The translations under genes were made by a program, and so were the position numbers. A stretch of DNA of 64,000 bases from Xanthomonas indica (GTDB lineage Bacteria > Pseudomonadota > Gammaproteobacteria > Xanthomonadales > Xanthomonadaceae). The stretch's first letter is position 1; each line of letters begins with the position of its first letter. The DNA lies in contig NZ_CP131914.1 of the NCBI RefSeq assembly GCF_040529045.1, positions 4,448,501-4,512,500 on the forward strand. Reading direction: 5' to 3'. Of the stretch, positions 14,752-56,079 are shown piece by piece. The notes under the pieces were generated by a model that saw only the letters and a list, made by a program, of their open reading frames with translations, had not been told where the DNA came from and searched no databases.

Positions 14752-14884
14752 GCAGTCGGGACTGACGTCCCTCCCACAGGCGTGCACCCTGCCTGGTACG
14801 CGGTGGCACATGTGCGTCGTAGGAGCGGCTTCAGCCGCGACCGGCTTTAATGGGAACGCCTGTCGCGGCTGAAGCCGCTCCTAC
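14752..14884. repeat. REP-like inverted repeat (GTAGGAGCGGCTTCAGCCGC family)
   Basis: Perfect 23-bp inverted arms at 14819-14841 and 14862-14884 are separated by 20 bp. A degenerate relative (GCAGTCGGGACTGACGTCCC) precedes them at 14752-14778. The same element with 28-bp arms occurs at 31304-31371. These resemble the extragenic palindromes dispersed in Xanthomonas and Stenotrophomonas genomes. Confidence 0.85.
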
Positions 14885-15033
14885 GGAAGGCAGCGCGTAG
14901 GTGGATCCAGCGAGGCGCTGCAACCGCGGCGGCCAGAGGTGCGCTTCAACCGCTGCGCCGGCACCCCGCCAGGAAGCGATGTCCTCTCACACCGAGATGG
15001 CGGTCGCCTTGCCAACCTCGCGATCGATAGCGC

Positions 15034-15717: not shown

Positions 15718-15858
15718 GCGGTTCTCCTCGTGAGGGGACGCGGCCATGCGGGGGCAGGCCGGGCGCCGCAGTATCGGCAGCCGCACATTCGCGGCGGGTG
15801 AGCGCCACACGCTTGCGCTGTGTGCCGACGCCCGGCGTCCCCCAACCGCCGGGACAAC

Positions 15859-17991
15859 TCAGGCGCTTGCCGCTACAGTCGCTGGCGCTGGCGACGACCA
15901 CAGGGCTCCATTGACGAGTTTCACTACACGACCCGCACTCGCGATGGTCTCTGGGCGATGTGCAATGATGATCCTGGTCAACTCCAGGTGTTTTATCGCG
16001 TCATTGACAGCGGATTCATTGACAATATCCAGGTGGCTCGTAGCCTCGTCGAGTACCAAGATAGATGGCCTCCCATAAAGCGCCCTAGCCAAAAGAATCC
16101 TCTGGATTTGCCCACCGGAAAGACCTGCACCGATATCCCCCACGACAGTGTGGTACTGCATGGGCATTTCTTCAATCTCCTTGCTGATGGAAGCAAGTCG
16201 CGCGCACTCGTACACGCGCTCCATATCTGGCTCAGGATGGAAGAACGCGATATTGTCCGCCAGGGAGCCGGCGAACAGCGTGTCGTTCTGCATCACCGTC
16301 CCCAAGAGTTTACGGTACCGCAACAGACCAAAGCGATTTATTGGGATGCCATTTATTATTATCTCACCACTGGTCGGCTCTAACAGTCCGAGCAATAGTT
16401 TGACCAGAGTGGTCTTGCCCGAGCCAGACGGGCCCGTAATGGCGACAGATTCCCCGTAAGTTACCTTTAGATTCAAATCGCGCAATACGTCCCTCTCGCC
16501 CTGCGAGTAGCGAAAGCTGACGTTGCGCAGCTCAAGTTCGACATTGCCCAAGGCCGCGGACCGGTCAAGCTGGCTTCTCGATTCCTCGGCTGGCGTCATC
16601 ACGATGTCCGCTACCCGGGAGCCGTGCAATGAAAGCATCCTGGCCTCAAAAAGCTTGTCGACAAGACTCGCCATCCGCTGACTGAACTGATCCTTATAAC
16701 TGATGTACGCAAACAACATTCCGACAGAGAAATTCTTTTCAATAACAGCCAACGCACCCAACCAAATAACGACAATCCTTTCCACATTGAAAACCAGACT
16801 ATTAGCCGACTGATGCAGGATCGAGATGCGCGATATATTGAGATCCGCATTGAATTGATCAGCTAGCGCATTCGCCCAGATGTTGCGCCTCACTTCACCG
16901 CGACCGAAGATCCGAATACTCTGAATACCCCGGACTGACTCCATGAAATTCTGCTCCTGACGGGCAGCATGAATGATCTGCTCCGACGTGGCGTTTCGCA
17001 GACGCCCGAAGAACACCAGGCGGAGTAACAGGTACAGCGTCACCGCACCCAGCGTCACCAGTGCAAGGCGTCCGCTGTAGATGAACATCATCACCAAAGT
17101 GCCAATGGCCATCAATCCATCAAGTACCACCTCAACGAACTGCGTCGTCACGATTCGCTGCATCGCCAGAATCGAATTGAATCTGGATACGATATCGGCC
17201 GTACTTCTCTTCTCAAAGTAAGGTAGCGGCAACTTCATCAGGTGCGAGAAAGCATTTCCCAGCCACTGAAAATTGAAGCTGGTGGACAGTGCCGTTGTCG
17301 CCCAGGTCCGCGCCATGGTGAAGACCGCCTGCATCATCACCAAAAGAATGAATCCGATGCCTAAAACCGATATAAGGCCAAGGTCGCCATTGACCAGCGC
17401 CTCATCGACGGTCCATTGCAGGTAGAACGGCAAGACGAGCATGCATGCCTGGATCGCCAAGCCAAGGCACACCACTTTCGCCAAACCCCGCCGGAGCCCG
17501 ATAACTCGCCCCATCAGGTCGCGAATGCGATAGGTCCGCACCTCCTTGACCGGCACAAAATCGCTACTGGGAGTCAGCTCAAGCGCAACGCCGGTAAACG
17601 CCTTGCTCACCTCGCGCATCGGCACATGGCGGCGCCCAGTGGAGGGATCGTGGATGACGATTCCATCGCGCAGCACGCGCTTCAATACGACAAAGTGGTT
17701 GAAGTTCCAGTGCAATATGCAAGGCGTTTCCAGATCCGAAAGATCGTCCAAATCCAGACTTAACGCGCGCGCTCTCAACGAGCAAGATTCGGCCATATCG
17801 ACGAGACCGAGCATGGTGACCCCTCGGATGGACGTAGGGAACCTCTTGCGCAGGCTATGCAGGTCCAACTGATGTCCCCAGTAGCACGCGATCATCGCCA
17901 TGCAGGCGATCCCGCACTCGCTGGCCTCCGCTTGCAGGGTCACCGGCAGCACCCGGCCCTTCCAAAGACCAACCCTCAGGCGATCCATCAT
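15859..17991 (-). CDS. C39 peptidase-containing ABC transporter (PCAT) for the lanthipeptide
   Basis: 710 residues. The N-terminal C39 protease domain (1-130) has Gln20 of the oxyanion hole, catalytic Cys26 (SECGIACM), His99 (WNFNHFVVLK) and Asp115 (HDPSTG). An ABC exporter membrane domain covers about 160-470. The ATPase domain has Walker A GPSGSGKTT at 520-528, signature LSGGQ at 624-628 and Walker B ILVLDE at 644-649. PCATs cut leaders after Gly-Gly and export the core peptide. Here the Gly-Gly precursor is encoded at the other end of the operon. The start lies 16 bp after the HlyD gene. It is AT-richer than the flanking genes. Confidence 0.93.
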   Translation of the reverse strand: MMDRLRVGLWKGRVLPVTLQAEASECGIACMAMIACYWGHQLDLHSLRKRFPTSIRGVTMLGLVDMAESCSLRARALSLDLDDLSDLETPCILHWNFNHFVVLKRVLRDGIVIHDPSTGRRHVPMREVSKAFTGVALELTPSSDFVPVKEVRTYRIRDLMGRVIGLRRGLAKVVCLGLAIQACMLVLPFYLQWTVDEALVNGDLGLISVLGIGFILLVMMQAVFTMARTWATTALSTSFNFQWLGNAFSHLMKLPLPYFEKRSTADIVSRFNSILAMQRIVTTQFVEVVLDGLMAIGTLVMMFIYSGRLALVTLGAVTLYLLLRLVFFGRLRNATSEQIIHAARQEQNFMESVRGIQSIRIFGRGEVRRNIWANALADQFNADLNISRISILHQSANSLVFNVERIVVIWLGALAVIEKNFSVGMLFAYISYKDQFSQRMASLVDKLFEARMLSLHGSRVADIVMTPAEESRSQLDRSAALGNVELELRNVSFRYSQGERDVLRDLNLKVTYGESVAITGPSGSGKTTLVKLLLGLLEPTSGEIIINGIPINRFGLLRYRKLLGTVMQNDTLFAGSLADNIAFFHPEPDMERVYECARLASISKEIEEMPMQYHTVVGDIGAGLSGGQIQRILLARALYGRPSILVLDEATSHLDIVNESAVNDAIKHLELTRIIIAHRPETIASAGRVVKLVNGALWSSPAPATVAASA

Positions 17992-18007
17992 CTCGATTCC
18001 AGCCTCT

Positions 18008-19303
18008 TCAGAGTCGTCCAGTCACGGTAAACAGCGGATCGAGAATCCACTCATATAACTTTCGCTGCTCCAGGTTGACGCTTCCTTCGACAAGCATTCC
18101 CGGCCTCAAAGGCACCTCTCTGCCATACACCCTGACGGTGGGAGACCCGATATCGATGCGAACCCGATAGAGGGGCTCCGCACCCGACTTCATTAGGCTT
18201 GCCGGAAGCCTGACCTCCTCGACTCGCATCGTGGATCGCGAAATCGCCTTGACCCGACCTGTCTGCTGGCCGAACTTTTGGTATGGGAACGCAGAATACC
18301 GCAGCGACACATCCATCCCCTCGCGCATCAGCCCCACCGCCTGCGACGGTGCATACATCTCGACCTCAAGCGGGCGGTCTTCGGGTATCAGCACAGCCAA
18401 TGGCAGTAGCGCACCCACCCCCTGGCCCGCAGCAACATTGACCGTTCCGACAACCCCATTCCCCAGCGCGCGAACCACGACAGTGCGCGTGCCTGTGCTT
18501 TCGGTCAGTTGCTGATCCAGTTCAAACGTCTTTCGCTGCAGATCGAGCGCGTCGAGCTTGAACTGTGCCGTTTGGTTTTGCATGTCGGACGCCAGGGAAC
18601 TGCGCTCCCTGCGCAATCGCTGGATTTGCCGACGGATGTCCACCAACTGTTGTTTTTTGCTCAGAAGATCCAGGCGCTTCTCGCGAACGGCAATGCCTGA
18701 CACATACCTGGAACTTTCCAGGTCCGAATAGGTCCTCGAAGTCTGCTCCGCCAGCGCGATAACCTGCACCTGCAACTGCTCCTGCTGGGAAGCCGCGCGA
18801 ATCTCTTCGTCGTAATCGCCAAGCCGCTCCAACATCGAGGTCTTCAGCAGCTCAGCTTTTCGTTGGCGCTCTGCTGTCTCTCTTTTCAGACTCTGACGGC
18901 GCTCATCGAGGAGTTCGGGAATCGCACCATCGCCACCTGCCAGGCGCGCATTGCCTAGCGACTCCGACAACACGAACATGGCTTGCCCGGCGTGCACTTG
19001 CTCGCCTTCCCTCACCAAGACCCTGGACACGCTCCCTGCGGAAGGTGCTATGACCGACACGGTTCCGCCTGCGGGGATCACCACGCCCTGCCACTGCACC
19101 TTCCGTGACGTGCTGAACGTGGCAAGAAACAGCAAGATCAGCGCGACGATCAGCACGCCTGCCAGCGCCATCCCTCCAACGAGCCGATCTCCAAGCAGAA
19201 GCACCGTGCCGTAGGACTTTGGCTCAGCCGATGCGGCGAGCGCTTGATGGCGAAACATCCCGCGGGAACTCTTATCCGCTCCACCAGGCGCATCTTGATC
19301 CAT
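18008..19303 (-). CDS. HlyD-family periplasmic adaptor of the lanthipeptide exporter
   Basis: 431 residues: a cytoplasmic N terminus, one TM helix at about 45-66 (GMALAGVLIVALILLFLATF), a lipoyl half (GSVSRVLVREGEQVHAGQAMFVL, about 89-112), a long coiled coil (about 130-270, rich in Arg, Gln, Glu and Leu), the second lipoyl half (VRALGNGVVGTVNVAAGQGV) and a beta-barrel region ending LRPGMLVEGSVNLEQRKLYEWILDPL. This is the membrane-fusion partner of type I/PCAT exporters, linking the pump to a TolC-like outer-membrane channel, which is not encoded nearby. It lies 21 bp downstream of the unknown gene at 19325-20107. Confidence 0.9.
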   Translation of the reverse strand: MDQDAPGGADKSSRGMFRHQALAASAEPKSYGTVLLLGDRLVGGMALAGVLIVALILLFLATFSTSRKVQWQGVVIPAGGTVSVIAPSAGSVSRVLVREGEQVHAGQAMFVLSESLGNARLAGGDGAIPELLDERRQSLKRETAERQRKAELLKTSMLERLGDYDEEIRAASQQEQLQVQVIALAEQTSRTYSDLESSRYVSGIAVREKRLDLLSKKQQLVDIRRQIQRLRRERSSLASDMQNQTAQFKLDALDLQRKTFELDQQLTESTGTRTVVVRALGNGVVGTVNVAAGQGVGALLPLAVLIPEDRPLEVEMYAPSQAVGLMREGMDVSLRYSAFPYQKFGQQTGRVKAISRSTMRVEEVRLPASLMKSGAEPLYRVRIDIGSPTVRVYGREVPLRPGMLVEGSVNLEQRKLYEWILDPLFTVTGRL

Positions 19304-19324
19304 GATCTGTCTCTTCCCTAACGA

Positions 19325-20107
19325 CTATCTACTCGCTGCAGAGTTCCCCGGGAAACTCTGGATGACATCGCCCTTGTCATCGATGAAGTCCAACGACGCC
19401 TTGCCGCCAGGCGCGACGGACATGATGATCCTGGGCCGTCCCGCGTCGTCCGCGAGGATGACGGCAGACGACTTTCCGCGCGTACGCCCAACAAAGAGCC
19501 TCTGGGTCTGCTGACCGCCCGCCTCCTTCCATTGCTTCAACAGCGCATCCTTCTCCACCCCTTTCGGGGCAGCCAAGTATTTCTCATACAACCCCTTGTA
19601 TTGCCCGTAGAGACCGCGATCGAATACGGAAAGACCCGTCTCCATGAACCCACCCTGCTCGTAATGATGCAGGGCCATTTGCTGATCTCCGCCATACCGA
19701 TCCATGGAGAGGTGCACGCCGCCATTTGGCTTGCCATCCTTATCGATATAACCGTCATAGATCAGCCCGCCGACCTCGTCGCCTACGCCATTGTAGAACA
19801 ACATCCCGGGCATCTTGCCGCGATCGCTTTTCCCGACCTCTCCGTCCGTCACGGGGTCAGGCAGAAAGCCGCGCGCCGCCAAGACCATGGATTTCGACCC
19901 ATCGTCGTTGACGATATTGATACGATTGACGTCGATTTCGGAGAAGACCTCCCTGCGAACCGGACTACGCGCGCCCATCATCATCAACATGAAGGGCAGC
20001 GCCAGCGCCACAGCCAAGAACGCCTTCAGAATCCGATTCTGCGTGCGTAGCTGGGCAACGACATCCGCCGCATCGCCACCAGCACGCTTCATATCTACCA
20101 TCGGCAT
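19325..20107 (-). CDS. Unknown membrane-anchored protein of the lanthipeptide operon
   Basis: 260 residues. A short charged N terminus is followed by one strong TM helix (about 29-46, AFLAVALALPFMLMMMG) and a mostly beta periplasmic region with repeated strand pairs (INIVNDDGSKSMVLAARGF, GMLFYNGVGDEVGGLIYDGY, LFVGRTRGKSSAVILADDAG, RIIMSVAPGGKASLDFID). I do not recognise the family. The topology suggests the bulk lies outside the inner membrane. It sits between the synthetase (9 bp gap) and the HlyD gene (21 bp gap), so a role in peptide maturation, immunity or export assembly is inferred from position only. Confidence 0.7.
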   Translation of the reverse strand: MPMVDMKRAGGDAADVVAQLRTQNRILKAFLAVALALPFMLMMMGARSPVRREVFSEIDVNRINIVNDDGSKSMVLAARGFLPDPVTDGEVGKSDRGKMPGMLFYNGVGDEVGGLIYDGYIDKDGKPNGGVHLSMDRYGGDQQMALHHYEQGGFMETGLSVFDRGLYGQYKGLYEKYLAAPKGVEKDALLKQWKEAGGQQTQRLFVGRTRGKSSAVILADDAGRPRIIMSVAPGGKASLDFIDDKGDVIQSFPGNSAASR

Positions 20108-20116
20108 ACCAATCCC

Positions 20117-22798
20117 CTAGTTTGCTGCCAGCAGCTCGTCCAGCATGATCACTTCATTCCGCTTATCGCCGGCCAGCCGATCCAGATAAGAAATAATGCC
20201 CGCGCCTCCACCCGCCAGTGAGCAACTTATCTTCGGCGAGTTTCCGCCCGGGAAGCATACCCCAGATTCCTTATCTATCCTGAAAAGGTCCAGACCGCAT
20301 GCGACCCGCCATGCCAAAGCACGATAGCTGTCGTCCTCCAGGAACTGCGCAGCGTCTAGCAGATAATGCCCGATCCCGGAAAGTCCAAGGAACAGATCGC
20401 CGCTCACCGTGTACTTCTGAGAAACCGACGCCTTGACCTGATCGACAAACACCTTGTACTTTTCCGACCGGGTAATCGCATACATGCGCACCGCCACGGA
20501 CGCCACGCCTGCAGTGCCAGCTCCCAGATAAGGATAGAGGATTCGATTCTCCTGCACGGTGTCACTGGGAAATCCCACGGCGCCGTTGACGGTGCGCCCA
20601 TGGGAGATATCGTGGTCCAGCCCTTGCATGGCGAGTTCGATATAAACGTCTTCACCGGTTGCTACGCCTAGGTACAGCAGAAACAACGCGATACCGGAGC
20701 CTCCAGAGTGAAGACCAAGTCCGGTGTAGCCGTTGGCGTCAAGACTCCAGGCGATCCCCGTGTCCTGAGCAACGCCTGTCGCCCGCAGCGCCTTGCCGAC
20801 TTTTACCGCCGCGTCCAGGTGTCTAGCGTCATTGCTGGCGAGCCAAACTTTGAGGCAGGCCATGCCATAGCCGGCATAGCCATAACCCAACGACATGCTT
20901 TCATGGAGCAATTGGTGCTCGGCCGCTCGCGTCAACGTGCGCTCCGATTCCGAGATCAAACCGATCGCGGACTGAACCCACGCCAGGCCGCACAATCCAT
21001 TGAGCAGCCCAGGCAGGTGATTGCCCTTGCCCCCCGAGCGCGCCATCCACCCCTTTAAATCCGCAGGAACGCTTTTATCAACCTGTTGCCAGACAAGCGC
21101 GACACCGGCCACGCCATGATCGATTGCAATGAGGTCTGCACTCTGCGGGCCCAGCGGGAACGGACGCCATGGATGATCAACCCGCATCACGCTTCGCATG
21201 TAGTCCATGGCTTTCACGACCACCTGTGCGACATCGGGACGGCGCATGTCCGCTGATTCGGCCGAGAACGCCGTCACGCGATCCAGATCGATCAGCTCAA
21301 GCAGTCGCCGACACTGCTGCAGGTCAGGATCGGAGTCTCGCAGCAGCGACTTGATGCAGGCATTGAATTCACGCGGCAGGCCGACGTCAACCATCAGTTC
21401 TGCGAGTATCCGCTCGGGATACTCTTCAATGATGTCCAGCGATACGGAGCTCGGCGCCAGCAGCGCGAGCAACACGCAACCTAGCGCATAGCAATCATCA
21501 GACATCTGAGCGACGTCTCGACCCCGGCGATCGGGAGCGCAGAATCCAGGAGTGTAGATATTGATGTTCTCGTCAACCCCGACCTGCAGCGCTCCCTCGA
21601 AGTCAATGAAGCGGAGTTGCATCGACTCCGGATCGATCATGATGTTATTGGTGGAAATATCACCGAATACGATCCCGTTAGCGTGCAAGAGCCGCACCTT
21701 CTCTATCAGATCGGCGCCGATAGCTGCCGACTGCTCCAGCCACGTTCTGACCTCGGCCTGAGAAGAACCTGGGTATAACGACTTTGTTGCGTCCAGGCAG
21801 TACTCTCTGAGTGTTTTCCCCGCCACCCTCTCCTGGACGAGAAATGTATGCTCCCATTCGACAAACCAGCCCAATGGTCGCGGCGCGATTCCGCTACCTT
21901 CCAGGACATGCAGAATTCTCTGCTCTTTCTTGAGGCGACTCAACGGATCGAGTCCGTTCACCTCCGCATCGACATGCGGACGCGCCTCTTTTATTACTAC
22001 CGGAAGATCATCGGTTACTCGCCGCGCCGCGTATACGCCACCGGCATTGGAAAACTTGAGCACGGACTCAATGGCATACTTCTCCCCAAATAGCTCGTCG
22101 GCGCCCGCGTCATCGGCAGGCGGCTCGCTTTGTCCCCAGCGCGCGTCGACTGCGAACTCGGGGACACGGAAGTGAGGAGTACGCAGGTCCTCCACCAAAC
22201 GGAATCCACCATCGAGGATCATGCTCTTTTCTCGCCCGCGCAGATCGCGAACGGTGAAGGCGCGGAACCCGCCATATCGATAGAATACCGCACCAGAGTC
22301 CTTGTATTGCCTGTCGGACAGGATGTAAGGACCTTGAATATCCCGAAGCTCCTGGTACAGCAACTCGATCAGACTCTCGAACTTTTCGATACCGGCCGGA
22401 TAGATCGTCATGAACTTCCCACCCGACTGCCTTGCCGCCGACTTGGAAAGCAGCTTTCGGTGTATGAACTCGTCGCTCGCGAACTTGAACTCCGTTCCGT
22501 CATTGGTACAGACGCGCGTCACCCGCTCAAGCACGACTCTGGCTTCTTTCAAAGTACAACTGATATGGATCTTCCAGCCCTGGGTGAGGTGCGGCGAAAC
22601 CGGCGCCACAGCCTGGGTCCAGAAGTAGTCGCGCCTTAGTCGCCACAGCGCGGGCAAAAGAGGATCGACGAAATCACAGTACGTTGACTTCGGCTTGTAT
22701 TTATTGAAAGGAACGAAGAACTCGGGATGCGCGTTAAGATCCCCAGCATTCTGATGATTCAAGTGAACCTCACAAAAATCAATCACGATGCCGCGCAC
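20117..22798 (-). CDS. Class III lanthipeptide synthetase (LanKC: lyase-kinase-cyclase)
   Basis: 893 residues. The N-terminal lyase-like domain covers about 1-230. The Ser/Thr kinase domain covers about 240-510, with Lys270 (VVIKEARP), catalytic loop GDISTNN with Asp380 and Asn385, and metal-binding Asp399 in DFE. The LanC-like cyclase covers about 545-893, built of Gly-rich repeats. At the positions where class I, II and IV cyclases hold zinc (W-C-x-G and C-H-G) this protein reads YPYLGAG and LFLGLSG, so zinc ligands are absent as in class III enzymes. It would phosphorylate and dehydrate Ser/Thr of the precursor and then form lanthionine or labionin rings. It follows the precursor gene by 135 bp. 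Confidence 0.92.
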   Translation of the reverse strand: MRGIVIDFCEVHLNHQNAGDLNAHPEFFVPFNKYKPKSTYCDFVDPLLPALWRLRRDYFWTQAVAPVSPHLTQGWKIHISCTLKEARVVLERVTRVCTNDGTEFKFASDEFIHRKLLSKSAARQSGGKFMTIYPAGIEKFESLIELLYQELRDIQGPYILSDRQYKDSGAVFYRYGGFRAFTVRDLRGREKSMILDGGFRLVEDLRTPHFRVPEFAVDARWGQSEPPADDAGADELFGEKYAIESVLKFSNAGGVYAARRVTDDLPVVIKEARPHVDAEVNGLDPLSRLKKEQRILHVLEGSGIAPRPLGWFVEWEHTFLVQERVAGKTLREYCLDATKSLYPGSSQAEVRTWLEQSAAIGADLIEKVRLLHANGIVFGDISTNNIMIDPESMQLRFIDFEGALQVGVDENINIYTPGFCAPDRRGRDVAQMSDDCYALGCVLLALLAPSSVSLDIIEEYPERILAELMVDVGLPREFNACIKSLLRDSDPDLQQCRRLLELIDLDRVTAFSAESADMRRPDVAQVVVKAMDYMRSVMRVDHPWRPFPLGPQSADLIAIDHGVAGVALVWQQVDKSVPADLKGWMARSGGKGNHLPGLLNGLCGLAWVQSAIGLISESERTLTRAAEHQLLHESMSLGYGYAGYGMACLKVWLASNDARHLDAAVKVGKALRATGVAQDTGIAWSLDANGYTGLGLHSGGSGIALFLLYLGVATGEDVYIELAMQGLDHDISHGRTVNGAVGFPSDTVQENRILYPYLGAGTAGVASVAVRMYAITRSEKYKVFVDQVKASVSQKYTVSGDLFLGLSGIGHYLLDAAQFLEDDSYRALAWRVACGLDLFRIDKESGVCFPGGNSPKISCSLAGGGAGIISYLDRLAGDKRNEVIMLDELLAAN

Positions 22799-22868
22799 GG
22801 ATGTGTTCGCGCATCGCAGGAAAAAAATTTCGGCAGCCGCTTCTACAATCTAATGAGACGCAGTAGAA

Positions 22869-22893
22869 CCGTGCGACCCAGCGGATCGCACGG
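22869..22893 (-). terminator. Hairpin between precursor and synthetase genes (possible attenuator)
   Basis: CCGTGCGA and TCGCACGG form an 8-bp stem with a 9-nt loop in the 135-bp gap downstream of the precursor gene. In the direction of transcription it is followed by TTCTACTG, not by a long U run, so partial termination or mRNA-end protection is more likely than a full stop. Such leaky hairpins often raise precursor over synthetase expression in RiPP operons. Confidence 0.45.
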
Positions 22894-22933
22894 CCTACTT
22901 TGCTACATCAATGCGAAACGCGGCACCTGATGA

Positions 22934-23134
22934 TCAGGAGCCGATCTGTGCATCGACAGTTTCCTTCGGACAACCCCGACTCGCGGTGCTCCACTCGTCC
23001 TTGGTAACGCCGCCACAGTTGATGCTGTCGGTGCTCCACGCAGCCAAGCCTCCGCTAACACCCTCCAATTCCTGCAGTGCCAGCACCTTCATCTTCGCCG
23101 AGGACTTGTTGCGCAGTTTGGAATCACTATTCAT
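22934..23134 (-). CDS. Lanthipeptide precursor with double-glycine leader and two WSTxSxxC motifs
   Basis: 66 residues from ATG 23134; an ATG 9 nt upstream (23143) is in frame but directly abuts AAAGG at 23144-23148, which is spaced ideally (9 nt) for 23134. The leader is residues 1-29, charged at first and ending LQELEGVSGG, the classic C39 recognition pattern with cleavage after Gly29. The 37-residue core carries two eight-residue repeats, WSTDSINC (33-40) and WSTASRGC (48-55), 15 residues apart. Each holds Ser-x-x-Ser-x-x-Cys, the labionin/lanthionine-forming pattern of class III peptides. It is the first gene of the operon feeding the LanKC and PCAT proteins. Confidence 0.88.
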   Translation of the reverse strand: MNSDSKLRNKSSAKMKVLALQELEGVSGGLAAWSTDSINCGGVTKDEWSTASRGCPKETVDAQIGS

Positions 23135-23148
23135 CCTGACCATCCTTT

Positions 23149-23610
23149 AGCTGAGTTATCCATATGCGAATTATCCGCAGACACAGATAATCCGCGTCCT
23201 TGAGTTACAGAAAACCGGCTGCAACTCGACCTCAAGAATCCCGAGGCAGACATGCCGTGTCAAGGTGATGAAAAGGATAAATGACTGGATTCTCCTACTC
23301 ACCAGAACTTGGCTACAGAATGCTCCACTCCCTACCCAGCCCCAGGTCTCAGCGGGCTACGGGACTCCCTTTCACCGACCATCTTCGTGTCAATGCGAGT
23401 CGGGCATTCCGGCCAGGATCGGTGACGCCTCCAAGGGTTCATGTTGCCGTGCACCGCAACGCGGCACTTCATACAGAACCGGCGTCCGACGGTTTCCGCA
23501 CGCACGCAGCGTCGGTCAGCAGCACAGCACGACACCACCTGCGCCACGATCGAACTGCGCCTACTGACAGCCAGATGCGCTTTTATGCCTTTGAACGCAT
23601 CTTCCCGGAC
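23149..23610. other. Presumed promoter region and unassigned DNA upstream of the precursor
   Basis: I see no convincing gene here. Just upstream of the precursor (23149-23200) the minus strand is AT-rich with repeated GGATTATC/GGATAATTC/GGATAAC words, and GATAAT could serve as a -10 element. The rest (23280-23600) has mixed composition, several short unsupported frames on both strands, and may be remnant DNA at the island edge. Confidence 0.4.
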
Positions 23611-24855
23611 TCACTCCACCTGGTCCATGCGGATGCGGTTGGCGAACAGCGAGAACGCCAGCATCCCGGCCAGGCCGCTGGCGCGCGCCACCCATGTCGG
23701 CAACCAGCGCGGCGGCGCCAGCACGCCGGACTCGAACAGCGGCGCGAACGCGGCCACGTCCTCCAGCGCCATCTTGCCGGCGAACAACCAGCGGCACAGC
23801 GGCAGCCGGTCGCGCTGCAGCGCCTGGCGGAAGAAGGTGTGCACCGACACCAGGCCGCGCAGGTACACGGTGTCCTTGGTGAACGCGGCGCCGCCGGTGG
23901 TCGGCACGCCGCGGAACACGCGCTGCGCCGAGGAGAAACTCTCCGCCGGCGCCTGCCCGGCCGCGTCGAAGTAGCGGAACACCTCGATGAAGTCGGCGCC
24001 GTCGCGGGCCAGCGCGATCGCCTCGATGCGCAGGCTGATCCGCTTCATCCGCGCGATGTCGATGCTGCCGGTGATCTGCTCGGCGAAGGTCGCCAGGCCT
24101 TCCTGGGTGGCGGTGGTGCGCGGCGAGGACAGCGCCAGGCTCGGCAACTGCGCCTGTTGCCGGCCATTGAGCGCGGTCAGCGAATGCACCAGCGCCTCGT
24201 GGTGGAACAGTTGCGCGCGGTCGTAGTCGCTGAAGTGCGCGCCGGAGCGCAGGCGGATGCGCTGCGCGCCGGCGGCGGCCTTGGCCAGCAGGTCCGGATC
24301 CAGTTCCACCGTGATCACCCGCGTGCCGAAGAATTCGTCCAGGTCGCGCTGCAGCAGCAGGCGCAAGGCGGTGGCCGACACCGGCACCTGTTCTTCGGCC
24401 GAGAACAGTTCGCGGTCCAGTTCCTGGGCGATGCGGATGAAATGGCCGGCCGCCTCGCGGGTCGTCGGGCCGTGGCCGGGCATCGGGTCGTCCGGCACCC
24501 CGAACAACTGCGCCGAATAGCGAGCCACCGCCGGCGTGCCCAGCGCTTCCAGCAGGGCCGCGGCCAGATCCCAACTATTCACCGAGGCCTGCAGGTAGGC
24601 GCCGAGCGGGTGCGCCGGATCGGCGGCCTGGGCGATCGCGGCCAGCTCGCGGCGGGTATCGGCAAAATCCAGCCTGGGATATTGCACCTGCGGCAGCTGC
24701 GGCTGCCCGCGCGCCACGCTCTCCAGGAACGGTGCCTGCAGCGCCACCGGCCAACTGGCCAGCGCCAGCAGGCGGATGCCGCGCACCGCCTTGACCAGCC
24801 GCGCATCGAGCGCGGCGTGGTGGCGGATCTCGACCGGCAGCGCGCGCTTGGCCAC
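23611..24855 (-). CDS. DUF1704 metallopeptidase-like protein (QEGLA motif)
   Basis: 414 residues if translation begins at the GTG at 24855, eight bases after the rsgA stop; no ATG occurs before the conserved region, which starts at about residue 20. The HHEALVHSLT motif (HExxxH, a gluzincin-like zinc site) is followed about 30 residues later by TATQEGLATFAEQ, the signature of the family often annotated 'flavohemoglobin expression-modulating QEGLA motif protein'. Eukaryotic relatives are tubulin carboxypeptidases (MATCAP). The bacterial substrate is unknown. Tight linkage to rsgA suggests co-transcription. Confidence 0.82.
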   Translation of the reverse strand: MAKRALPVEIRHHAALDARLVKAVRGIRLLALASWPVALQAPFLESVARGQPQLPQVQYPRLDFADTRRELAAIAQAADPAHPLGAYLQASVNSWDLAAALLEALGTPAVARYSAQLFGVPDDPMPGHGPTTREAAGHFIRIAQELDRELFSAEEQVPVSATALRLLLQRDLDEFFGTRVITVELDPDLLAKAAAGAQRIRLRSGAHFSDYDRAQLFHHEALVHSLTALNGRQQAQLPSLALSSPRTTATQEGLATFAEQITGSIDIARMKRISLRIEAIALARDGADFIEVFRYFDAAGQAPAESFSSAQRVFRGVPTTGGAAFTKDTVYLRGLVSVHTFFRQALQRDRLPLCRWLFAGKMALEDVAAFAPLFESGVLAPPRWLPTWVARASGLAGMLAFSLFANRIRMDQVE

Positions 24856-24863
24856 GGCCGGCG

Positions 24864-25976
24864 TCAGCGGCGCAGGTTGCGCGGCGGCGGGCGCTTGCCG
24901 CCCGACTTGCCGCCACTGGGCTTGCCGCTGCGGCCGGCGGCCGCGTTCTGCGCCTGGCGCTGCGCCAGCTTGCCGGCCGCGCCGGCCACTTCTTCGCGCA
25001 ACTTCAGGTAGTTGGCCAGGCGCGCGGCATCGATCTCGCCGCGCTCGATCGCCGCCTGCACCGCACAGCCCGGCTCGGCCAGGTGCGCGCAGTCGTTGAA
25101 GCGGCACTGCGCGGCCAGCGCCTCGATGTCGGCGAAGGCGCCTTCGGCCAGGTCTTCCTCGCCGGTGGGCTTGAGTTCGCGCATGCCGGGGGTGTCGATC
25201 AGGCAGGCGCCGGACGGCAGCGGCAGCAGCGCGCGATGGGTGGTGGTGTGGCGGCCGCGCGAGTCGGTGGCGCGCACCGCCGCGGTGCGCATCTTCTGCA
25301 CGCCCAGCAAGGTGTTGGTGAGGGTGGACTTGCCGGCACCGGACGAGCCGACCAGCACCGCGGTCTGCCCCGGCCCCAGCCACGGCTGCAGCGCGGCGAC
25401 GCTGTCGGCTTCGCGCGCGTTGACCGTGAGCAGCGGGATGGCCTGCGCCGCCAGTTCCTCCAGCACCGCCAACGCATCGTCGGCGTACTCGGTGAGATCG
25501 GCCTTGGTCAGCACCACCACCGGCGCCGCACCGCCGCCGCCCACCAGCAGCAGATAGCGCTCGATCCGCCGCGGATTGAAGTCCGCATCGAGGCCGCAGA
25601 CGATGAACACCGTGTCGATGTTGGCCGCGATCACCTGCTGGTGATAGTGCTCGCCGGCGGCGCCGCGCTTGATCGCGGTGCGCCGCGGCAGCAGCGCGAC
25701 GATGCGCGTGTCCTCCAGCAGCACCCAGTCGCCGACCGCGGCGCGCTCGTGGCTGGGAAAGCGTGGCCGCTGCCAGTCCGGCAGCGATTCGACCTTGAAC
25801 CCGGTGTCCACCGCATCGGCGACCACGTAGCCGGTGCGGTGCTGCTCCACCACCCGTGCCGGCCGTGCCTGCGGATGTGTGTCGAACAGCGCGCGCCAGG
25901 CCGGCTCCTCGGGCATTCCGGGCCAGGGCCAGCCGATGGGGCGCAACGCGTCGAAGTCGATCGGGGAGGTGGTCAT
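24864..25976 (-). CDS. rsgA: RsgA, ribosome small-subunit-dependent GTPase
   Basis: 370 residues. An OB-fold covers about 40-110. The circularly permuted GTPase follows: LTKADL (G4) comes before GSSGAGKST (P-loop, G1) and DTPGMREL (G3). The zinc knuckle is CRFNDCAHLAEPGC near 295-310. A basic C-terminal tail (RSGKPSGGKSGGKR) probably contacts rRNA. RsgA checks 30S subunit maturation. The ATG at 25976 gives the usual length. It is followed by the DUF1704 gene with an 8-nt gap. Confidence 0.95.
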   Translation of the reverse strand: MTTSPIDFDALRPIGWPWPGMPEEPAWRALFDTHPQARPARVVEQHRTGYVVADAVDTGFKVESLPDWQRPRFPSHERAAVGDWVLLEDTRIVALLPRRTAIKRGAAGEHYHQQVIAANIDTVFIVCGLDADFNPRRIERYLLLVGGGGAAPVVVLTKADLTEYADDALAVLEELAAQAIPLLTVNAREADSVAALQPWLGPGQTAVLVGSSGAGKSTLTNTLLGVQKMRTAAVRATDSRGRHTTTHRALLPLPSGACLIDTPGMRELKPTGEEDLAEGAFADIEALAAQCRFNDCAHLAEPGCAVQAAIERGEIDAARLANYLKLREEVAGAAGKLAQRQAQNAAAGRSGKPSGGKSGGKRPPPRNLRR

Positions 25977-55681: not shown

Positions 55682-56079
55682 GAGTGGCCAACAAAACGAC
55701 CGCGCAGCTGCCAGGCCGGCGCGTGCAGCGCTCGAAATCCGCATGTGGCGCTGTACATCGCAGTCCTGTGCCCGTCCGCGCCCGCCTGGCGACTGCTCGC
55801 GCCGTTTTGTCAGCCCCTCTGAAGTCTCATCCGGCTTGGTGTGGGCGCTCGGGTTCTTTCGATCGCCGCTGGCTACAGTGGGTGATGCACGTTGAGGCGC
55901 TATGCCTCGCCTGTCCGCGGCGCGGCCGGCCAACCCGCGGGGAAACGGCCTGTGGCGCGCCGAGACCGGCAGTTTGCGAGGCCGGCACCGGCGCAGCCGT
56001 GGTGGTCATGGTGGTCCTGCCGGCTGCGACACAGCGGCCCGGCGCTTTGCTCTGAGCGCGCGCGCCGCGCTGCGCTAGC
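55682..56079. other. Gap before the AraC gene
   Basis: About 400 bp with no supported gene. There is no long repeat, terminator or RNA. Short frames on both strands lack homology-like patterns. Confidence 0.4.

What the first reader, a model, noticed from the sequence alone, without database searches (positions are those of the whole stretch)
15859..23134. Complete class III lanthipeptide operon with PCAT export in a xanthomonad
Seen directly: five minus-strand genes with gaps of 135, 9, 21 and 16 bp encode a Gly-Gly leader precursor, a LanKC synthetase, an unknown membrane protein, an HlyD adaptor and a C39 peptidase-ABC exporter. Known: class III lanthipeptides are mostly described from actinobacteria and usually lack a dedicated C39 protease, their leaders being trimmed by other peptidases. 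A LanKC paired with a double-glycine leader and PCAT in a Gram-negative plant-associated genus is a combination I do not recognise as characterised. Inference: the product is a dehydrated, ring-containing ~37-residue peptide exported through a type I-like tripartite system.
Basis: partly seen in the sequence, partly recalled or inferred. Interest (0 to 1): 0.93.

Follow-up and report, generated by a model that had tools for sequence, protein, structure and literature searches.

The report
Ring-forming peptide with borrowed export tag
A Xanthomonas-like bacterium carries, on a small acquired DNA island, genes predicted to make a ring-containing peptide (a class III lanthipeptide) whose leader also carries the cut-and-export signal of Gram-negative microcins, a pairing seen in only a few relatives and not described in the papers searched.

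Summary
In detail: five minus-strand genes at 15859-23134 encode a 66-aa precursor, a class III synthetase (LanKC), a 260-aa membrane protein, an HlyD adaptor and a C39 peptidase-ABC exporter (PCAT). They lie on a 7.8-kb low-GC island missing from a same-species genome. Of 37 LanKC loci examined, 6 have C39 beside LanKC, and those six LanKCs form one clade (100/100). All 5 with a readable precursor share a composite leader: the class III box (VLxLQ) lies inside a double-glycine leader, and Leu-12 belongs to both recognition patterns. Each core has two WSTxSxxC repeats, containing the SxxSxxC labionin/lanthionine motif. The sister LanKCs, on Deinococcus plasmids, go with ordinary class III leaders and a plain ABC exporter, yet one has the same double-WSTxSxxC core: core and enzyme lineage were kept while leader and exporter differ. 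The C39 exporters themselves are not one clade (p-AU 1.5e-9), and the exporter half of the island is about 95% identical between two congeners while the LanKC half is about 80%, suggesting module exchange. Best reading: a class III lanthipeptide secreted in microcin fashion. Product, rings and activity are untested.

The parts
15809..23610 (.). Acquired island holding the whole operon; absent from a same-species genome (G006), where the two flanks lie about 10 bp apart
   Evidence: GC 57.1% against 68.7% for the whole window; no direct repeat seen at its ends by eye
22934..23134 (-). Precursor peptide gene, 66 aa: 29-residue leader ending GG, 37-residue core
23072..23086 (-). Class III recognition box VLALQ in the leader (positions -13 to -9)
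   Evidence: conserved as VL[AS]LQ in 5 of 5 readable loci; contact residues of the ThurA leader from PMC10604976 (passages)
23048..23053 (-). Double glycine before the predicted cleavage site; hydrophobic residues at -4 (V), -7 (L), -12 (L), -15 (M)
   Evidence: C39 recognition rule from PMC10885120 (passages)
23015..23038 (-). First core repeat WSTDSINC (holds SxxSxxC)
22970..22993 (-). Second core repeat WSTASRGC (holds SxxSxxC)
22862..22898 (-). Stem-loop between precursor and LanKC; a strong hairpin lies at the same place in the three relatives folded
   Evidence: z -2.99; relatives -2.38, -5.79, -2.76
20117..22762 (-). Class III synthetase LanKC (lyase, kinase, cyclase), probable TTG start; a GTG-started ORF runs from 22798
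19325..20107 (-). 260-aa protein: one predicted membrane helix and a beta-sheet domain; accessory, function unknown, possibly self-protection
18008..19303 (-). HlyD-family periplasmic adaptor
15859..17991 (-). C39 peptidase-ABC exporter (PCAT), peptidase residues Q, C, H, D present
20000..20100 (.). Step in identity to the G001 island: about 95% below, about 80% above; inferred recombination border between exporter and LanKC modules

Best explanation
A horizontally acquired operon for a class III lanthipeptide secreted in the manner of a Gram-negative microcin. LanKC binds the VLALQ helix of the leader, phosphorylates Ser/Thr in the core, eliminates phosphate and closes one (methyl)lanthionine or labionin ring system on each WSTxSxxC repeat. 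The same helix is then read by the C39 domain of the exporter, which cuts after Gly-Gly; the PCAT-HlyD pair, with a TolC-type channel encoded elsewhere, exports the 37-residue product. Because the two recognition patterns overlap (L-12 is in both), modification and cleavage should be successive and mutually exclusive. Shown by sequence: the genes, motifs, co-inheritance and island. Inferred: binding order, cleavage, ring type, export and an antibacterial role.
For: LanKC passes its curated model; all eight lyase residues listed for ThurKC, and the kinase Asp, Asn and the Asp and Glu of DFE, are conserved in 37 of 37 loci. C39 beside LanKC in 6 of 37 loci, no C39 match at E<=0.01 in the other 31, the six LanKCs being one clade at 100/100. 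In 5 of 5 readable loci the precursor joins VLxLQ, GG and two WSTxSxxC; of the 31 loci without C39, 0 have WSTxSxxC and 1 (L032) has a GG before the first Cys. The sister LanKC of a Deinococcus plasmid has the same core with a plain class III leader and no C39. C39 catalytic residues present. Precursor under purifying selection.
Against: No product, cleavage or ring has been observed. The C39-GG link rests on one LanKC clade, so the loci are not independent. One of the 31 'no C39' loci (L030) has only 595 bases after LanKC, so its exporter cannot be judged. The genome has a second C39 protein, so exporter specificity is assumed. No immunity gene is identifiable, and no sigma-70-like promoter match was found upstream. 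The cyclase's lack of zinc ligands was judged by eye only. The L025 LanKC scores below the class III cut-off (540.9 against 575) and has Arg for the kinase Lys, as do 5 of the 31 others. G001 has GGG, so its cut site is ambiguous by one residue.
Confidence: 0.77

Rival explanations
1. An ordinary class III lanthipeptide trimmed by a house peptidase (M1, M16, S8 or S9 type), with the C39 exporter acting mainly as a transporter or on another peptide.
For: The known class III leader peptidases are of those kinds (PMC10885120 and PMC8960859, passages). The two Stenotrophomonas-like loci have an M61 peptidase ORF directly after the PCAT gene. The genome has another C39 protein.
Against: All 5 readable precursors with C39 beside LanKC have GG with hydrophobic -12, -7 and -4 residues, whereas 30 of 31 precursor sets without C39 lack a GG before the first Cys (GA and GS were not counted); C39 active sites are intact.
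Confidence: 0.12
2. The product is a signalling or surface-active peptide (like the SapB morphogens) rather than an antibacterial. This would leave the biosynthesis and export scheme unchanged.
For: SapB/AmfS-type class III peptides are morphogens (PMC7268733 passage; a SapB/AmfS locus seen). The ring region is highly conserved, and no immunity gene is clear.
Against: Strain-level presence on an island, a step in divergence suggesting module exchange, an exporter whose relatives are on 873 plasmid records and a variable core tail look more like a bacteriocin. None of this tests activity.
Confidence: 0.3
3. The operon is inactive or its parts are chance neighbours.
For: The same-species genome G006 lacks it; no consensus promoter found.
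Against: All five ORFs are intact with short gaps; dN/dS 0.06-0.23 for the five genes against G001; the order precursor-LanKC-HlyD-PCAT recurs in L021 and L068, and LanKC-HlyD-PCAT in the cut contig L022.
Confidence: 0.05

Closest known systems
Class III lanthipeptides made by LanKC (ThurKC structures 8SAM, 8SAO, 8SAP; labyrinthopeptins recalled)
   Same: Synthetase domains and catalytic residues, LxLQ leader box, SxxSxxC core motif
   Different: Leader box lies directly in a double-glycine leader instead of near the N-terminus; dedicated C39 exporter and HlyD; Gram-negative host
Class III cluster of the Deinococcus sp. QL22 plasmid (NZ_CP097152.1, annotated as class III lanthipeptide)
   Same: Sister LanKC (39.7% identity; joint group 100/98, midpoint root) and the same core with two WSTxSxxC repeats
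   Different: Plain class III leader (MNKILKLQ..), five tandem precursor genes, a 544-aa ABC transporter without C39
Class II lanthipeptides with LanT (C39-ABC)
   Same: GG leader cut by a C39-ABC exporter
   Different: Rings made by LanKC, not LanM. PMC8960859 says LanT is used exclusively in class II (passage); PMC7268733 adds C39 genes in class I clusters of Bacteroidetes and GG leaders in class III (passages)
Gram-negative microcin exporters (CvaA/CvaB type, recalled)
   Same: HlyD adaptor plus C39-ABC; leader end ELxxVSGG (likeness recalled); related exporters on 873 plasmid records
   Different: Cargo is modified by a class III synthetase; no TolC or immunity gene recognised in the island

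Membership tests
Class III lanthipeptide | Trifunctional LanKC: lyase, kinase and LanC-like cyclase in one protein | tested here: met
   Three Pfam domains; NF038151 637.8 against cut-off 575, class IV 482.4 against 650
Class III lanthipeptide | Lyase and kinase catalytic residues | tested here: met
   K77, H79, K106, K120, K129, D163, R175, R207 and K271, D381, N386, D400-F-E in P0002
Class III lanthipeptide | Cyclase without zinc ligands | tested here: inconclusive
   No Cys-His pair seen by eye at the motifs printed; no alignment to a zinc LanC was made
Class III lanthipeptide | LxLQ-type leader box and SxxSxx(x)C core motif | tested here: met
   VLALQ; STDSINC and STASRGC
Class III lanthipeptide | Lanthionine or labionin in the product | not testable with these tools
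   -
PCAT (C39 peptidase-ABC exporter) | C39, transmembrane and ATPase domains with intact peptidase residues | tested here: met
PCAT (C39 peptidase-ABC exporter) | Substrate leader with GG and hydrophobic -4, -7, -12 | tested here: met
   V-4, L-7, L-12 before GG; rule from PMC10885120
PCAT (C39 peptidase-ABC exporter) | Cleavage and export of this precursor | not testable with these tools
   -
Microcin-type secretion operon | Exporter with HlyD adaptor and outer-membrane channel | tested here: inconclusive
   HlyD in the operon; TolC-family matches only elsewhere in the genome (20 domain matches)
Microcin-type secretion operon | Immunity protein | tested here: inconclusive
   Only the 260-aa protein could serve; 14 of 14 of its relatives' loci fetched had no LanKC, C39 or HlyD match, but two more lie kilobases from a LanKC
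Class II lanthipeptide | LanM synthetase | tested here: not met
   P0002 scores 38.5 against the LanM cut-off of 304

The most novel reading that the evidence does not exclude
A natural leader and exporter swap: one LanKC-core lineage carries the same double-WSTxSxxC core either behind a plain class III leader with a plain ABC exporter (Deinococcus) or behind a composite leader in which a single helix is read first by LanKC (V-13, L-12, L-10, Q-9) and then by C39 (L-12, L-7, V-4, GG). The two readings compete for Leu-12, enforcing order. The composite leader let the peptide be plugged into interchangeable microcin exporter modules, giving a family of labionin-type microcins in Gram-negative bacteria.
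Probability: 0.5. Interest if true: 0.75.

Novelty: new variant of a known kind. Interest (0 to 1): 0.62.

Why it matters
Leader removal in class III lanthipeptides has been hard to assign because most characterised clusters lack a peptidase gene (PMC8960859, passages). Here the cleavage site and enzyme are predictable from sequence, so the exact 37-residue product can be made and tested. It gives a compact leader that should work with both a class III synthetase and a microcin exporter, useful for secreting ring-containing peptides from Gram-negative hosts. The Deinococcus sister offers a ready comparison of one core under two delivery systems.

Tried and rejected
Considered and rejected: class IV or class II assignment of the synthetase; the 260-aa protein as a core biosynthetic part (absent from four of the five other operons with C39; of its 27 match rows I fetched 14 loci, and 14 of 14 had no LanKC, C39 or HlyD match, while two others, G776 and G859, lie in LanKC loci L084 and L082 several kilobases from LanKC; among the 50 structural matches listed of 603 the best TM-score was 0.31, mostly OspA sheets); the island as a phage or plasmid (no LanKC match at E<=1e-20 in 50,697 phage records; none in a pattern-based scan of viral contigs; no near DNA match in plasmids). 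None of the five island genes is a transposase; a transposase-like HTH protein lies next to the G001 copy. LanKC was found only in the own genome among 369 class and 299 phylum genomes; these samples are thin and overlap others. No promoter- or terminator-like match at 22700-23620.

Weak points: the counts of loci with C39 and GG come from one clade; my precursor finder required an LxLQ-like box, so precursors without it would be missed; GA and GS sites were not counted; L030 has too little sequence after LanKC; the C39 exporter tree has 11 rows, five of them picked from plasmid hits. L022 is a cut contig and its precursor was not readable. Direction of the leader change was not tested.
Full report
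What is there. From the 5' end: a 66-aa precursor; LanKC; a 260-aa protein with one predicted membrane helix; an HlyD adaptor; a C39 peptidase-ABC exporter. LanKC probably begins at TTG 22762, since a GAGG motif precedes it and the G001 and Stenotrophomonas copies align from the same codon. LanKC meets the curated class III model (637.8 bits against 575) and not the class IV or LanM models. Against the ThurKC crystal sequences the eight lyase residues named in the paper (PMC10604976, passages) are conserved in all 37 loci compared, as are the kinase Asp and Asn and the Asp and Glu of the DFE motif; the kinase Lys is Arg in 6 of 37, L025 among them. The exporter resembles PCAT1 and ComA in solved structures, and its C39 residues Q, C, H and D are in place. 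No call names the organism; Xanthomonas is inferred from the sX9 RNA and the relatives.

The precursor. It reads MNSDSKLRNKSSAKMKVLALQELEGVSGG / LAAWSTDSINCGGVTKDEWSTASRGCPKETVDAQIGS, the stroke marking the predicted cut. Relatives beside LanKC genes in G001, Stenotrophomonas sp. BIGb0135, G031 and G719 share K.KVL[AS]LQ.L....GG and two WSTxSxxC repeats; G001 has GGG. The ThurKC paper places Val, Leu, Leu and Gln of the leader, spaced VLxLQ, in the LanKC groove. The peptidase review gives hydrophobic residues at -4, -7 and -12 and GG as the C39 signal (PMC10885120, passages). In this leader VLALQ occupies -13 to -9 and the C39 positions are L-12, L-7 and V-4, so Leu-12 belongs to both. That both proteins use it is inference. 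Each repeat contains SxxSxxC, the motif type that gives labionin or lanthionine in class III peptides (PMC7268733 and PMC8960859, passages).

Distribution. With LanKC as query: 3 of 20 genus genomes, 17 of 297 family, 19 of 250 order, 1 of 369 class and 1 of 299 phylum genomes, own genome included each time, samples overlapping. One pattern-based scan of the genome collection gave two more loci. The precursor profile hit 4 of 395 family genomes. I examined 37 LanKC loci: the window, L021, L022, L023-L039, L068-L084. C39 lies beside LanKC in 6 (window, L021, L022, L023, L025, L068). A C39 profile run with filters off gave no match at E<=0.01 in the other 31 nor in 5 plasmid loci; one weak off-strand score (L083, E 0.055) was set aside, and L030 ends 595 bases after LanKC. 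Candidate precursors were found in 31 of the 31 others, by a search that required an LxLQ-like box; none has WSTxSxxC and one (L032) has a GG before its first Cys. The upstream part of L022 is missing.

History. The six LanKCs with C39 form one clade, 100/100 (37 rows). With five plasmid LanKCs added, and two broken or partial rows dropped, they stay one clade at 100/100, and with a midpoint root their sister is the Deinococcus pair, 100/98 (40 rows). Three of the five QL22 precursor genes were translated (the other two share an accession with one of them); the first reads MNKILKLQSLSTTSLVEDTAAWSTSSYGCNTVGTDEWSTASNGCTKTQQVN, the same core architecture behind an ordinary class III leader. The neighbouring ABC transporter is 544 aa without C39. 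D. gobiensis has one WSTxSxxC. So the core and enzyme lineage were kept while leader and exporter differ; which state is older was not tested. The C39 exporters of the six loci are not one clade: a Janthinobacterium plasmid exporter groups with the window, G001 and Stenotrophomonas ones, and holding the six together is rejected (p-AU 1.5e-9; 0.0012 when L025 is left out of the group; 11 rows, two long branches). G031 has MacA- and MacB-like genes after the PCAT gene, and no match to this HlyD.

Mobility. The same-species genome G006 has the two flanks about 10 bp apart where the window has 7.8 kb. Island GC is 57.1%, window GC 68.7%. G001, a draft of about 150 contigs, has the same island on one contig and the window's flanking genes on two others, with a transposase-like HTH gene next to the island. 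Between the two islands the three exporter-side genes are about 95% identical in DNA (dS 0.17-0.23), LanKC about 80% (dS 0.78) and the precursor lower (dS 1.24), with a sharp step near 20000-20100. I read this as exchange of exporter or LanKC modules by recombination.

The 260-aa protein. Relatives occur in 22 of 200 order genomes; in the 14 loci I fetched none had a LanKC, C39 or HlyD match, although two other LanKC loci (L082, L084) have a distant relative several kilobases off. The model (pLDDT 82.6) shows a membrane helix and a beta sheet with no convincing structural match. A protective role is possible, no more.

Mechanism, with status. Shown by sequence: genes, motifs, conservation, co-occurrence, island. 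Inferred from known families: phosphorylation, elimination and cyclisation by LanKC; C39 cleavage after GG; export through PCAT, HlyD and an outer-membrane protein from elsewhere (20 TolC-family domain matches in the genome, none in the window). Guessed: the hairpin between precursor and LanKC (z -2.99; also in the three relatives folded) may keep precursor transcripts in excess; the product may be antibacterial.

Literature. Nine searches combining LanKC or (class III) lanthipeptide with C39 peptidase, PCAT, Xanthomonas, Stenotrophomonas, Lysobacter, Deinococcus, double glycine, microcin and related terms listed no title on this pairing in the held open-access library; I opened passages of 13 papers, not whole texts. 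Passages say LanT C39 is used exclusively in class II, and list S8, S9, M1 and M16 peptidases for class III. PMC7268733 notes GG leaders in class III LanAs, citing an actinobacterial study I could not read. LanKC or class III clusters in Lysobacter are noted without product (PMC9410377; PMC11451712, eight clusters), and a refactored Myxococcus class III cluster gave a modified peptide (PMC9576775). The papers that hold both LanKC and C39 or PCAT and were opened for that (PMC13060382, PMC11002830, PMC9872173, PMC12328550) speak of class II or other systems in the passages shown. The review by Hegemann and Suessmuth was not held. Absence from print beyond these searches is not claimed.

Noticed in passing
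window 23614-25794 (-): The gene beside the island matches MATCAP (PF08014, E 4e-122), in Pfam the microtubule-associated tyrosine carboxypeptidase family. What the bacterial form does is unclear to me.
   Followed up: no
window 14818-14886: A REP-like short repeat: G006, G002 and G003 carry many copies on both strands.
   Followed up: no
window 55743-55815 (+): Xanthomonas sRNA sX9 (RF02228, 50.2 bits), which supports the genus assignment.
   Followed up: no
L022: A contig in a record titled Bacillus subtilis SK7B5 carries the Stenotrophomonas-like version of the operon; probably a mislabelled or contaminating contig.
   Followed up: no
L021:14147-16102, L022:6063-8018: An M61 peptidase ORF opens 4 bp after the PCAT gene in both Stenotrophomonas-like loci (L021 copy identified; L022 by likeness of the ORF start); it could trim the exported peptide.
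   Followed up: partly
L025:1505-4794: MacA-like adaptor and MacB-like transporter genes follow the PCAT gene in G031, possibly self-protection or a second exporter.
   Followed up: partly
L035, L082, L084: LanKC loci with three candidate class III precursors each.
   Followed up: no
L039 (G106): LanKC gene in two frames with several stops in the joined stretch, apparently broken; the G152 relative is open.
   Followed up: no
G000:C1:2554573-2554950: A second C39 protein elsewhere in the same genome; its cargo was not looked for.
   Followed up: no
P0002 residues 691-703 and relatives: The six LanKCs with C39 share GLHxG in the cyclase; none of the 29 others with letters at that place has His in that column.
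   Followed up: no
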